Origin: Solirubrobacterales bacterium
GTDB taxonomy: Bacteria; Actinomycetota; Thermoleophilia; Solirubrobacterales; 70-9
Length of the DNA stretch: 50,498 nucleotides
Assembly (NCBI GenBank): GCA_023958085.1
Contig: JAMLGI010000014.1
Location: 1-50,498, forward strand
Reading direction: 5' to 3'
Shown: positions 5,362 through 11,144 of the stretch, in pieces
Layout of the letters: every line of letters starts with the position of its first letter
Position numbering within the stretch: position 1 is the first letter of the stretch
Notes under the pieces: model-generated
The model's input: only the letters and a program-made list of their open reading frames with translations
Databases searched by the model: none
Told to the model about the DNA's origin: nothing
Made by a program: the position numbers and the translations under genes

Positions 5362-5503
5362 TTCGTGGGCTCCTTCCCGATCAGGGGCCGGAACTTGCGA
5401 ATCCGGGACCTGCCTTTACGGGTCCGTCCGGTTGTTATACGGTCCCGTTACCGCCGGAGAGGGAGCTTCGGGTGTTCACCGAAAACCCACCGAGAGCTCG
5501 GGC

Positions 5504-8500
5504 ATGCATTCAGGATCCTTCCTCGTCTTCAGGCACCCGACCAGACTGGCACTGCTGGTCCTGGTCGCAGCCGTCTGCCTTTTCGCAGGTACGGTTGGCA
5601 AGGCGTCCGCCGGCAACACGGTCGCACCCGCCGATCAGGCTTCGCTGCAGAGCTCCCCGGTTGATTTTCGGGGCAGCGCCAGCCTTGACTTCCTGACTTA
5701 CGCGCCGGGCGTTTCCCTGGAGCTGTTCCGCTACGAGGAGCAGGTGCAGGGCTGTTTCGATCAGCCCGGTGACCCCTGTTACGACCCCTTCGGGCTTCCC
5801 CTGACCGGTGTCATGCATCCGGCCGGCACCGCCTCGGGCGGTCTCGGCCTGAGCGGCGACTGGAACATTCCGGTCGGTTCGCTGGAGAACCGTTCGGTGG
5901 ATTTCAGTCCGGCCCCGGACGGCACGCCACTCGAGGACGGCAGGTATCACCTCCGGGTCACTCAGGCAAACCATTCCGCGGGTGGTTCCGACGCGGTCTG
6001 GGAAACGGACTTCTGGGTTGACAGCAAGGCCCCGGACACGGTCCTCCAGTCACAGGTTCCTGCCGACCAGTACACGCCCGGACCGAGGAGCTTCAAGTAC
6101 TACGCGCTGCGGAACGGGTACAGCCACGGCCAGAGCCGGGTTGACGCCGGTTCGCCAACCGATCTCGAGTGTCGCGTGGACGGTGGCGGATGGCACGGTC
6201 TCAACACCACGCCGTCCGACCCGCCGGAGGAGTTCAACTGCCATGGCGTCGCCACGCTCGACCCCGATCTGGTCGGACGATACGCCGAGTACACGGTCAA
6301 CGCCGCCGACGAGGGCTGGCACAGCTTCGAGGCGAGGGCCCGGGACGCCGCCGGCAACGTCGATCCGACTCCGCTCCGGGTCGATTGGCTGATCGACCGG
6401 ACCGCACCGGAGATCACCATCAACGAGCCCTCGATGCGTGAACGCTACGTGCTCGGCCAGCACGTCCCTTCGAACTTCAGTTGTGATGACCCGCCGGCCG
6501 GGAGCCCGCCCGGGGCGTCCGGGATCAGGAGGTGTCAGGGTCCGGCGACGGTCGACACCTCCCGGCTCGGCAACTTCACCTTCACGGTGAACGCGGAGGA
6601 CCGGGCCGGAAACACCTCCTCGAAGACCCACAGCTACGCGGTCGATCCGCCCCGCTATCCCGATCTGGTCGGCGGCGGCAGCCCGATCGCCTACTACCGG
6701 CTCGGTGACCCGCTCGGGGCAACCGCGATGACCGACTCCTCCGGCAGTCACCGTGACGGCGAGTACATGAACGGGATCGCGCTGGAGCGACCGTCCGCCC
6801 CGAACTGCGAGCGACGTCCGCATCAGCCTCACACCTGTGACCTGACCGCCGATCCGGAGAACTCTTCGGCCTTCTTCCCGGCCCGTGACGGGTACGGCTT
6901 CACCAACAGCATCGTCGCCCCGCAGACCGGCTACACGCTGGAGGCGTGGATCAACCGGGCCGATTCAGGCGCCGGTTCGATCGTCGGCCAGGGCGGGGCC
7001 GGGCAGCTCTTCGTCAACGCCGACGGGAAACTGGCTCTGCGTCAGACCCAGGACACGGTGACCTCGTCCGGACCGGTGCTCACCCCCGGCCAGTGGTTCC
7101 ACGTCGCCGCGACCTGGAACGGTTCGGTCGCACGGCTCTACGTGAACGGCAGTCAGGTCGGCAGTTCGAGCTCGGCCAACAAGGCACCGTCCGGTTCGGC
7201 CACCCTCTACGTCGGCTACGGCGATCAGGCCCCCTGGTTCCACGGCCGGCTCGACGAGGTCGCCTACTTCGGCAAGGCCCTGTCCGGCGGCACCTTCGCG
7301 ACCCGGTACGCGGTCGGCACCGCCCACGATGTGTCCGGCCCGGTCAACGGCCCGCCGATCCAGCGGCCCGATGTCCACATCCTCACCCCGCCGGACGGGG
7401 CACTCTACGCGCCGACCAAGACCCCGGCCCTCGACTTCAGCTGCTCCGATCTCGACGGCAACGCGACCGTGGCCGACTGTGACGCCACCGTGGACGGCAG
7501 CCCGGCCGCCAACGGTTCCGGGCTGCCGGATGCCCCCGGTGCCCACACCGTTTCGGTCACCGCGGTCGACGACAGCGGGCTGGCCCGCACCCACGCCAGC
7601 ACTTACTACGTCCGTTCCTTCCAGGACATCTACAACGCCGACGATCCGATCGTCTACTACCGCCTCGGTGATCCGGTCGGTGCCGGGACGATGGCCGACT
7701 CCTCCGGCAACCACCGGAACGGAACCTTCAGGAACGCCCAGGACTCCGGTCCGGCCGGGATCTCCGGTGACGGAGACCGGGCCCGCCGCTTCCTCGGCTC
7801 GGGCGGCTACGGCTTCGCCAACAACATCACCGCCCCGACCACCCAGGGTTCGATGGAAGCGTGGGTCAACCCGGACGACAGCCGCGACCAGTCGGTGATC
7901 GGTCACGGCGATGCCGGTGAGATCTACATCGAGAACGGGGTCTTCAAGTTCCGTCACATGGGCACCACGGTTGCCGCCGATCTCGGACCGGTGCCGGGTC
8001 GCTTCACCCAGGTGGCCGCGGTCTGGGACGGGGTGACGATCGCGATCTACGTCGACGGTGAACTCCACGGCCAGACCGAGGCGACCAGGCGACCCTCTTC
8101 TTCCTCAACCCTCTACGTCGGGTTCGGCGAGATCAAGCCCTGGTTCAAGGGTTCGCTCGACGAGGTCGCCTACTACGGCACCGCCCTCACGTCTGCCCGG
8201 GTGCTGGAACACTTCCTCGCCGACCCGCCGGCCGCCGACGAAATCGAAGCCGAAGAGCCACGGCCGACCGGACCCGTCGGCAACGGCAACGATCCGGTTT
8301 CCGGTGAAGAACCCCCGTCCCCGGACGGGCAGCCGGGTAACAACGGGGTCCGGCCGATCGGCGCCCCGGCAGAGAACGGCAGGGCTGCCCGCAAGGCGAA
8401 GGCGAAGATGCGGGCCAAGGCCCGGGCCCGGGCGAACTGCCGCAAGCTCGGCAAGGCAAAGAAACGCCGAGCCTGCCTGCGCCGCGTAAACCGACGCTAG
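5504..8500 (+). CDS. Secreted multidomain protein with two LamG/concanavalin-like domains
   Basis: About 998 residues. A signal peptide (about 12-36) is followed by Ig-like repeats with DxAGN motifs (about 180-380), a LamG-type domain (about 385-602), another Ig-like segment (about 622-702) and a second LamG domain (about 708-904). Both LamG domains open with YYRLGDP and end with LDEVAY. The C-terminus is acidic/Pro-rich and then strongly basic (Ala/Lys/Arg, last 40 residues). The ATG at 5504 is preferred over TTG at 5432 because it directly precedes the signal peptide and has GAGAG upstream. LamG domains usually bind carbohydrate or surface ligands; no catalytic motif is visible. Likely a cell-surface adhesin or polymer-binding protein. 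Confidence 0.8.
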   Translation: MHSGSFLVFRHPTRLALLVLVAAVCLFAGTVGKASAGNTVAPADQASLQSSPVDFRGSASLDFLTYAPGVSLELFRYEEQVQGCFDQPGDPCYDPFGLPLTGVMHPAGTASGGLGLSGDWNIPVGSLENRSVDFSPAPDGTPLEDGRYHLRVTQANHSAGGSDAVWETDFWVDSKAPDTVLQSQVPADQYTPGPRSFKYYALRNGYSHGQSRVDAGSPTDLECRVDGGGWHGLNTTPSDPPEEFNCHGVATLDPDLVGRYAEYTVNAADEGWHSFEARARDAAGNVDPTPLRVDWLIDRTAPEITINEPSMRERYVLGQHVPSNFSCDDPPAGSPPGASGIRRCQGPATVDTSRLGNFTFTVNAEDRAGNTSSKTHSYAVDPPRYPDLVGGGSPIAYYRLGDPLGATAMTDSSGSHRDGEYMNGIALERPSAPNCERRPHQPHTCDLTADPENSSAFFPARDGYGFTNSIVAPQTGYTLEAWINRADSGAGSIVGQGGAGQLFVNADGKLALRQTQDTVTSSGPVLTPGQWFHVAATWNGSVARLYVNGSQVGSSSSANKAPSGSATLYVGYGDQAPWFHGRLDEVAYFGKALSGGTFATRYAVGTAHDVSGPVNGPPIQRPDVHILTPPDGALYAPTKTPALDFSCSDLDGNATVADCDATVDGSPAANGSGLPDAPGAHTVSVTAVDDSGLARTHASTYYVRSFQDIYNADDPIVYYRLGDPVGAGTMADSSGNHRNGTFRNAQDSGPAGISGDGDRARRFLGSGGYGFANNITAPTTQGSMEAWVNPDDSRDQSVIGHGDAGEIYIENGVFKFRHMGTTVAADLGPVPGRFTQVAAVWDGVTIAIYVDGELHGQTEATRRPSSSSTLYVGFGEIKPWFKGSLDEVAYYGTALTSARVLEHFLADPPAADEIEAEEPRPTGPVGNGNDPVSGEEPPSPDGQPGNNGVRPIGAPAENGRAARKAKAKMRAKARARANCRKLGKAKKRRACLRRVNRR

Positions 8501-8504
8501 GAGC

Positions 8505-9145
8505 AGGTACTGGAACTCCCAGTGACGGTGCGGTTGGGGAACCCCACCAGCCGTCGAGCACCCCCACGCTCCCGCCCCAGGCCCTGGCCGGCAGCCGATT
8601 CAGCCCCGGTCCGGAGACCCCTCACAAAGCATTGAGGGGAGGGCTGTCAACCGTATGGCCAAGAAGTCTCCCCTCGATCGCGGGCGGCCGTCAATCACGG
8701 AGCTGTGGAGGCGGGTGGCGTGGCGGATCCCGGCGGATCTCCCGATCCCGCCCTCCAGGTTGGTGGGGCCCGCAGGTATCCGTCTAGGCACTGGTTGGCC
8801 CCACCATTGGTAGCGGGCCGCCTTTGAGCACGGAGCTGTGTAGGCGGGCCGGGTGGGGATGCCGGCGGAACTCCCGGTGAGAGACAGTTGCCGAGCAACT
8901 GTTTCGATAGCCGGCGCACTTAACACGGAGCTGCGGTCGGGTGGGGTGTGGGGGTTCCTCGCGGAACTCCCGGTGAAAATGAGGTTGCGGCCGCAACCTC
9001 ATTGATAGCTGGCCGCCTTTCGTGAACCGAAGCTGTTGAGGGGTGGGCCGTGGGGATCCTGACGGAACTCCCGGTGAGACTTGGATTGCGATAGCAATCC
9101 AAGTGATAGCCGGCCGTCAGGATCCCCACGGCCCACACCCAACCA
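8505..9145 (-). repeat. Tandem array of hairpin units with conserved flanks and variable paired arms
   Basis: This fills the gap between the LamG gene and tRNA-Lys; no protein gene is seen. Three clear units contain GGAACTCCCGGTGA (plus strand, at 8867, 8963 and 9064; period 96-101 bp), then a palindrome, then GATAGCYGG. The palindrome arms are 8884-8891/8895-8902, 8979-8988/8993-9002 and 9080-9089/9094-9103. The outer arm sequences differ completely between units yet pair perfectly; the apex TTGC/GCAA is shared. A CACGGAGCTG-like block recurs at 8696, 8829, 8924 and (degenerate) 9026. Degenerate units lie at 8512-8560, 8634-8675 and 8735-8805. The last unit also has a perfect 23-bp outer stem (9043-9065/9114-9136). 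Confidence 0.8.
8735..8805 (-). repeat. 71-bp inverted-repeat copy, left
   Basis: The reverse complement of this 71-bp segment matches 11074-11144 with three mismatches (68 of 71). The pair brackets the hairpin array, tRNA-Lys and the cysteine-protease-like gene, 2.3 kb in all. Inside it, GGTGGGGCC and GGCCCCACC form a terminal stem. It occupies the palindrome position of one unit of the tandem hairpin array and is followed, on the minus strand, by the CGGGAGATCC variant of the conserved flank. Confidence 0.85.
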
Positions 9146-9154
9146 CAAGCGAAG

Positions 9155-9228
9155 TGCCCCCTCTGGGACTCGAACCCAGGACTCACAGGTTAAAAGCCTG
9201 CAGCTCTGACCAGCTGAGCTAAGGGGGC
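9155..9228 (-). tRNA. tRNA-Lys (anticodon UUU)
   Basis: The minus strand folds into a cloverleaf. The acceptor stem is GCCCCCT/AGGGGGC with an A discriminator. The D arm is GCTC..GAGC, the anticodon loop is CTTTTAA (anticodon TTT), and the T arm is CTGGG TTCGAGT CCCAG. CCA is not encoded. The gene lies between the hairpin array (its 3' side) and the secreted cysteine-protease-like gene, which runs the other way. Confidence 0.97.
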
Positions 9229-10992: not shown

Positions 10993-11012
10993 CCGGAAGG
11001 ATCCCAATCAAT

Positions 11013-11056
11013 GGTGGGGCCCACAGGTGTCCATATGGATACCTGTGGGCCCCACC
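11013..11056. terminator. Strong hairpin between convergent genes
   Basis: The arms 11013-11032 and 11037-11056 pair over 20 bp with one G.T wobble around an ATAT loop. The hairpin lies 20 bases after the cysteine-protease-like gene and before the 3' end of convergent purH, so it may end transcription from both sides. There is no T-tract. Its arm sequence (GGTGGGGCCC...) is shared with the 71-bp inverted repeats, so it belongs to the same repeat family. Confidence 0.6.
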
Positions 11057-11073
11057 CCTGAGGTACGGGCTCC

Positions 11074-11144
11074 GGTGGGGCCAACCAGTGCCTACACGGA
11101 TACCTGCGGGCCCCACCAACCTGGAGGGCGGGGCCGGGAGATCC
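11074..11144 (+). repeat. 71-bp inverted-repeat copy, right
   Basis: Reverse-complement partner of 8735-8805 (68 of 71 identical). It begins GGTGGGGCC, contains the matching GGCCCCACC arm and ends with CGGGAGATCC. It lies 17 bases after the 11013-11056 hairpin and 18 bases before the end of purH. Together with its partner it flanks the tRNA-Lys/cysteine-protease-like segment. Confidence 0.85.

What the first reader, a model, noticed from the sequence alone, without database searches (positions are those of the whole stretch)
8505..9145. Tandem hairpin array: conserved flanks, non-homologous but perfectly paired palindromes
Three clear units and at least three degraded ones repeat every 96-101 bp. 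Each has GGAACTCCCGGTGA, then a palindrome, then GATAGCYGG. The outer palindrome arms are unrelated (ACAG/CTGT, ATGAGG/CCTCAT, CTTGGA/TCCAAG) yet pair perfectly, while the apex TTGC/GCAA is constant. That pattern of conserved repeat plus variable palindrome implies selection for structure, not sequence. The last unit adds a perfect 23-bp outer stem. It could be a family of structured RNAs, a protein-bound cruciform array, or a repeat expanded by recombination.
Basis: seen in the sequence. Interest (0 to 1): 0.75.

Follow-up and report, generated by a model that had tools for sequence, protein, structure and literature searches.

The report
Mobile hairpin repeats inside essential genes
The hairpin array beside a tRNA gene belongs to a family of short mobile-looking DNA hairpins that has spread, without breaking the reading frame, into the flexible linkers of essential genes in one family of bacteria, always keeping the same small bulge and near-perfect pairing while almost everything else in the sequence changes.

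Summary
The intact unit (9040-9139, + strand) is one copy of a dispersed hairpin family: a 24-26 bp outer stem with almost free sequence, an invariant 5-nt bulge A(A/G)CUC on the 5' strand, a variable inner stem and, in the short form, a CGAA(G) loop. It occurs in 16 of 18 genomes of the window's genus (Solirubrobacterales MAGs) and in two further genera of the family. In 54 copies the outer arms pair 95% with their own partner but 65% when swapped; 354 double-compensated cells against 107 in shuffles. About 35 copies sit in frame, always in the same codon phase, in linkers or tails of nuoC, nuoF, nuoG, dnaX, PDH-E2 and rpsE. Orthologous sites are empty in some species, and nearest relatives often lie in different genes. 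Imperfect pairs are G.T rather than A.C on the bulge strand (68:11), even where that strand is antisense to the gene (35:1), so the constrained molecule appears to be the element's own strand, not host mRNA. Best reading: a non-autonomous, RPE-like palindromic mobile element recognised as a folded single strand. The mobilising enzyme was not found. The kind is known (RPE/REP); this family appears new.

The parts
9040..9139 (+). complete unit C: 5' outer arm 9040-9065, bulge AACTC 9066-9070, CCGGT 9071-9075, inner hairpin 9079-9104, GATA-GCCGG 9105-9113, 3' outer arm 9114-9139
   Evidence: covariance-model hit R2 E=2e-11
8940..9014 (+). unit B: 5' outer arm, GGAACTC at 8963, inner hairpin 8978-9003; 3' outer arm lost here, intact in the paralog on contig C15
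8841..8915 (+). unit A: 5' arm, GGAACTC at 8867, inner hairpin ACAGTTGCC-GAG-CAACTGT; 3' outer arm lost
8696..8830 (+). variant unit: shared leader CACGGAGCTGTGG, GGCGGATCTCCCG, then a hairpin of a second repeat family (8762-8805), then GGTAGCGGGCCG
8512..8570 (+). degraded copy GGAACTCCCAGTGA with local hairpin, 12 nt after the stop codon of the upstream gene; no outer stem
9154..9228 (-). tRNA-Lys(TTT), converging on the array; its 3' end is 14 nt from unit C
5432..8500 (+). upstream gene, long secreted-type protein (1022 aa ORF), ends just before the array

Best explanation
The units are copies of a non-autonomous mobile palindromic element of the RPE/REP kind, here with a bulged hairpin as its identity tag. 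SHOWN: a dispersed family with an invariant 5-nt bulge A(A/G)CUC between GG/CC and a C-G pair, a freely varying but compensating outer stem of 24-26 bp, a variable inner stem and often a CGAA loop; in-frame residence in linkers of essential genes in both orientations; empty orthologous sites; closest relatives in different genes; a pairing constraint specific to the bulge strand whichever way the host gene is transcribed. INFERRED: the bulge strand is exposed as a folded single strand (ssDNA at the replication fork, or an RNA copy) and is recognised by an unidentified recombinase through stem plus bulge, then reinserted in either orientation. Only insertions that keep the frame and give a disordered Pro/Gly/Ser/Thr/Ala/Asp/Glu-rich peptide survive in genes. 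Copies that lose pairing are no longer mobilised and decay. In this window, copies also piled up downstream of a tRNA gene.
For: Covariation: 17 of 29 pairs doubly changed in six own-genome units; 59 double-change cells vs 17 shuffled, 93.5% paired, collapsing on slides; 54 copies from three genera: 95% paired with own arm vs 65% with swapped arms, 354 double changes vs 107 (max 128) shuffled; bulge AACTC 51/54, AGCTC 3/54. Strand specificity: G.T vs A.C on the bulge strand 68:11 overall; 22:9 in sense-coding, 35:1 in antisense-coding, 11:1 in non-coding copies. In-frame residence, fixed phase, both orientations, Pfam-confirmed hosts nuoC, nuoF, nuoG, dnaX, E2, rpsE, mfd-like, recJ, murC-like. 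Empty vs occupied sites in dnaX, nuoG, E2. Nearest copies in different genes, e.g. G013 nuoC/nuoG, G000 nuoC/nuoG, G010 nuoC/G011 dnaX. Inverted pairs always divergent.
Against: No transposition was observed, no target-site duplication or exact boundary was established, and no mobilising enzyme was identified: Y1_Tnp and RVT_1 are absent from all 18 genomes except one. Copy numbers are modest (about 1-12 per genome). Some orthologous copies keep pairing over long divergence, which could also mean a resident function. The G.T/A.C count is not corrected for shared ancestry, although excluding the two most conserved wobble columns leaves 43:11 overall and 21:1 for antisense-coding copies. All genomes are drafts.
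Confidence: 0.6

Rival explanations
1. Resident mRNA structure: hairpins at domain boundaries act in the host mRNA, for example slowing ribosomes between domains or protecting or processing the transcript.
For: Copies sit in linkers between folded domains of multidomain proteins (dnaX, E2, nuoG) and stay very stable in mRNA in either orientation: -89 and -77 kcal/mol for the two strands of the nuoG copy.
Against: In antisense-coding copies the departures are G.T on the bulge strand, i.e. A.C mismatches in the mRNA, 35:1. Orthologous genes lack the element in several species. Disordered linkers are also simply where insertions are tolerated.
Confidence: 0.12
2. Selection-free palindrome maintenance: template switching or arm-to-arm conversion keeps the arms complementary (quasipalindrome correction), as discussed for nematomorph mitochondrial coding palindromes (PMC6649704).
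For: Some close pairs differ only by fully compensated pairs (G000 nuoC vs nuoG: 3 two-sided outer-stem changes, 0 one-sided).
Against: Arm conversion has no reason to keep G.T and remove A.C on one defined strand (68:11), nor to hold a 5-nt unpaired bulge constant in 54 copies. One-sided changes are as common as two-sided in closest pairs (36 vs 35).
Confidence: 0.12
3. The window array is a tRNA-Lys or gene-end terminator or RNA-processing array; the coding copies are secondary.
For: Non-coding copies lie just 3' of tRNA-Lys (window) and two tRNA-Leu genes (L125, L134) and 9-24 nt after likely stop codons in other species.
Against: No U-tract follows; most copies in the genus are inside open reading frames; the bulge strand is antisense to the tRNAs.
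Confidence: 0.08
4. A trans-acting structured RNA gene family.
For: Strong covariation and an invariant bulge look like an RNA or protein-binding motif.
Against: No Rfam family matches above its gathering score. Copies are mostly embedded in coding sequence in both orientations with presence/absence variation.
Confidence: 0.05

Closest known systems
Rickettsia palindromic elements (RPE-1 to RPE-7)
   Same: Small palindromic repeats of about 100-150 bp, lineage-restricted, inserted in conserved protein-coding genes without breaking the frame and also between genes (PMC2229807, PMC3767692).
   Different: Different host (Actinomycetota, Thermoleophilia); a fixed strand-specific AACUC bulge; pairing kept by compensatory change while the stem sequence turns over, whereas RPEs are reported to lose repeat identity with time (statement in PMC6649704).
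REP/REPIN elements mobilised by TnpA-REP (RAYT)
   Same: Bulged, strand-specific hairpins; E. coli TnpA-REP needs the folded single strand and its bulge (PMC8266576); inverted doublets.
   Different: No GTAG foot seen, a much longer stem, frequent coding location, and no Y1_Tnp gene in 17 of 18 genomes.
Coding palindromes of nematomorph mitochondria
   Same: Long inverted repeats inside coding genes, gained and lost dynamically (PMC6649704).
   Different: Those are perfect repeats arising within the genes themselves; here all copies share a bulge motif and belong to one dispersed family.
Integron attC sites
   Same: Folded single-strand recombination sites with conserved unpaired bases and variable stems (general knowledge).
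   Different: No cassette organisation or attC core boxes recognised; integron integrase was not searched for.

Membership tests
Rickettsia palindromic elements (RPE) | palindromic repeat inserted in frame in conserved protein genes | tested here: met
   nuoC/F/G, dnaX, E2, rpsE, mfd-like, recJ, murC-like
Rickettsia palindromic elements (RPE) | sequence homology to RPE families and occurrence in Rickettsiales | not tested
   RPE sequences were not compared; all copies found are in one family of Solirubrobacterales. I claim 'works like', not membership.
REP/REPIN | cognate TnpA-REP (Y1 HUH) transposase in the genome | tested here: not met
   PF01797: 1 of 18 genomes (G004), absent from the copy-rich genomes; control genomes ring
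REP/REPIN | short hairpin with 5' GTAG foot | tested here: not met
   flanks of 45 copies show no common GTAG at the stem foot; 24-26 bp outer stem
Classical MITE | conserved terminal inverted repeats and target-site duplication | tested here: inconclusive
   outer arms vary between copies (56% identity in two other genera); boundaries fuzzy, no duplication established
Known Rfam RNA family | match above gathering score | tested here: not met
   only tRNA-Lys in the window; permissive scan gives only matches below gathering score, mostly generic hairpin-type

The most novel reading that the evidence does not exclude
A new class of mobile hairpin without a recognised transposase, defined by an AACUC bulge in an otherwise free-sequence stem, moves as a folded single strand (DNA or RNA) through an unknown recombinase and has repeatedly remodelled essential proteins, including a ribosomal protein, the clamp loader and complex I, in a family of Actinomycetota.
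Probability: 0.35. Interest if true: 0.78.

Novelty: new variant of a known kind. Interest (0 to 1): 0.62.

Why it matters
In-frame mobile palindromes in conserved genes are best known from Rickettsiales, and I found no report of them in Solirubrobacterales in the papers searched. This family has a sharp structural signature, strong covariation and a strand asymmetry that separates host-mRNA function from mobile-strand function. That makes the open question of how RPE-like elements move testable: what binds an AACUC-bulged hairpin. It also shows essential proteins acquiring linker sequence from selfish hairpins.

Tried and rejected
Rfam scan: only tRNA above gathering; the low matches are mostly generic miRNA-like hairpins. 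Chance: rejected by fold z-scores, covariation and a genome-wide count of 13 against 0. RAYT/REP mobilisation by Y1 transposase and retro-mobility by RVT_1: genes absent except in G004. Wide taxonomic spread: the exact-core scan of 84,980 species gave hits in Streptomyces, Pseudomonas, archaea and others, but their flanks pair at chance level (6-16 of 24) against 22-24 of 24 (or nearly all of the stretch available at a contig end) in Solirubrobacterales. Translational bypassing (byp-like): not needed, since the coding copies are stop-free in frame with lengths of 71, 77, 80 or 101 nt. A first idea that the family is confined to one genus was dropped after searches found members in two more genera. 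A paper search found nothing on palindromic repeats in Solirubrobacter-type genomes.

Full report
1. The observation. The window is contig C14 of a 2.44 Mb draft genome. Three exact GGAACTCCCGGTGA units lie at 8867, 8963 and 9064, with a one-mismatch copy at 8512. Each exact unit carries a fully paired inner palindrome. Only the last (9040-9139) still has both outer arms, 26 nt and 96% complementary. It folds at -83.3 kcal/mol, z = -12.7, with 0 of 200 shuffles as good. The 'degraded units every 96-101 bp' are not a regular array: Tandem Repeats Finder sees none, and the stretch 8696-8830 is a variant unit holding a hairpin of a second, unrelated repeat family.

2. Genome-wide family. The 14-mer occurs 13 times in the genome and never read backwards. 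Six full units align with 17 of 29 pairs doubly compensated. A covariance model from these units (R1) found more copies in the genome and in 11 congeners. There a shorter form prevails: outer stem, bulge AACUC, CCGG-CGAAGU-CCGG. A second model (R2) found members in 16 of 18 genomes of the genus and, family-wide, hits in two further genera. Of 18 such loci fetched, 11 keep the GG-AACUC-C bulge and a CGAA loop, with outer arms only 56% identical to each other; the rest are other palindrome families. An exact-core scan of 84,980 species found true members only in MAGs labelled Solirubrobacterales or Actinomycetota; other hits lack the outer stem. Solirubrobacterales belong to Thermoleophilia, Actinomycetota.

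3. Structure under constraint. In alignment A4 (16 copies) 93.5% of cells pair and 59 cells are doubly changed against 17 in shuffles; sliding the partners by 1-3 columns drops pairing to 30-53%. For 54 copies from three genera the outer arms pair 95% with their own partner, 65% with another copy's; 354 doubly changed cells against 107 shuffled (maximum 128). The bulge is AACTC in 51 and AGCTC in 3. In two rpsE copies even the inner helix changed in a compensated way (CCGGT/GCCGG to CGGGT/GCCCG).

4. Which strand. Departures from Watson-Crick pairing are G.T far more often than A.C when read on the bulge strand: 22:9 where the bulge strand is the mRNA sense, 35:1 where it is the antisense of the gene, 11:1 elsewhere. 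Without the two columns with the most wobbles these are 13:9, 21:1 and 9:1. In antisense copies the host mRNA would carry A.C mismatches, so host mRNA is unlikely to be the constrained molecule. The counts are not corrected for shared ancestry. G.T tolerance would be expected for RNA and, more weakly, for folded ssDNA; the data do not decide between them.

5. Where copies live. In the window's genus 35 of 45 tabulated copies lie in long coding frames (14 sense, 21 antisense), and wherever the host frame was read out they are in the same codon phase: sense GGA-ACT-CCC (GTPGE...), antisense ...PGVP.... That phase gives peptides about 80% P/G/S/T/A/D/E with few aromatic or basic residues; other phases are richer in Arg and Cys/Trp/aromatics, and two of them often contain stops. 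Hosts confirmed by Pfam: nuoG, nuoF, nuoC, dnaX, PDH-E2 between lipoyl and E3-binding domains, rpsE C-terminal tail, an Mfd-like protein (UvrB-interaction domain) and, in other genera, recJ, E2, a Mur ligase and a GMC oxidoreductase. Own-genome coding copies include nuoG, nuoC (two), E2 (two), rpsE (two), mfd-like and a decayed one in dnaX. Non-coding copies in this genome lie just 3' of tRNA-Lys (window) and of two tRNA-Leu genes; in other species several lie 9-24 nt after likely stop codons.

6. Mobility evidence. Orthologous linkers in dnaX, nuoG and E2 are occupied in some congeners and element-free in others; the nuoG linker carries sense copies in some species and antisense in others. 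Among closest copy pairs several join different genes: G013 nuoC/nuoG, G000 nuoC/nuoG, G010 nuoC/G011 dnaX, G013 nuoC/G015 nuoG. Where two copies sit close together in opposite orientation they are always divergent. Decayed remnants exist. I could not fix the ends or a target duplication, and did not see movement itself.

7. Mechanism. I commit to a non-autonomous mobile palindrome recognised as a folded single strand by stem plus bulge (0.6). REP elements are the mechanistic precedent: E. coli TnpA-REP acts on one folded strand and needs the bulge (PMC8266576). But Y1_Tnp, and RVT_1 as a retro alternative, are missing from 17 of 18 genomes, so the enzyme is unknown. Biologically the closest match is the Rickettsia palindromic element, in frame in conserved genes (PMC2229807, PMC3767692), which is reported to lose repeat identity over time (PMC6649704); here pairing is kept by compensation.

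8. Rivals. Host-mRNA function conflicts with the antisense-copy wobble bias. Template-switch correction does not explain strand-specific wobbles or the constant bulge. A terminator role may hold for the tRNA-adjacent copies but not for the family. A discrete RNA gene family is unlikely given coding residence in both orientations.

9. Limits. All genomes are drafts; gene calls are ORF-based with Pfam support for representatives; no expression data; related copies are not independent. The array in the window probably reflects repeated insertion or recombination beside a tRNA gene: a paralogous array on C15 retains the arm that unit B lost here, and ends in a stretch resembling the 3' half of a tRNA-Leu.

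Noticed in passing
window 8762-8805 and 11009-11144; L216-L224: A second dispersed palindrome (GGTGGGGCC..GGTATCCGTATGG..GGCCCCACC, about 44 nt, tens of copies in the genome), usually as doublets about 60 bp apart and often between convergent genes; REP/terminator-like.
   Followed up: partly
L235, L238, L242, L243: Another palindrome family with a different internal motif (GGAACAACRGCGGGGA.GTTCC) in two other genera; three of the four lie in frame, in an Lhr-like helicase, cysteinyl-tRNA synthetase and a pseudouridine synthase, giving an EQQxGGS peptide.
   Followed up: partly
L239, L240, L241: Long palindromes of about 120 nt (CCGGTGGGGGTCCC..GGGACCCCCACCGG) with a large internal loop in two genomes of another genus of the family.
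   Followed up: no
L125:2200-2260 (G000 contig C15, near 38,240): Sequence resembling the 3' half of a tRNA-Leu directly beside a hairpin array; looks like an integration scar that carried the array.
   Followed up: no
window 8696-8708, 8829-8841, 8924-8936, about 9028-9037: A leader CACGGAGCTGTGG precedes each array unit and resembles the sequence around the tRNA 3' end (GCGAAGTG / GCGGAGTGCGG); possible target or junction sequence of the array.
   Followed up: no
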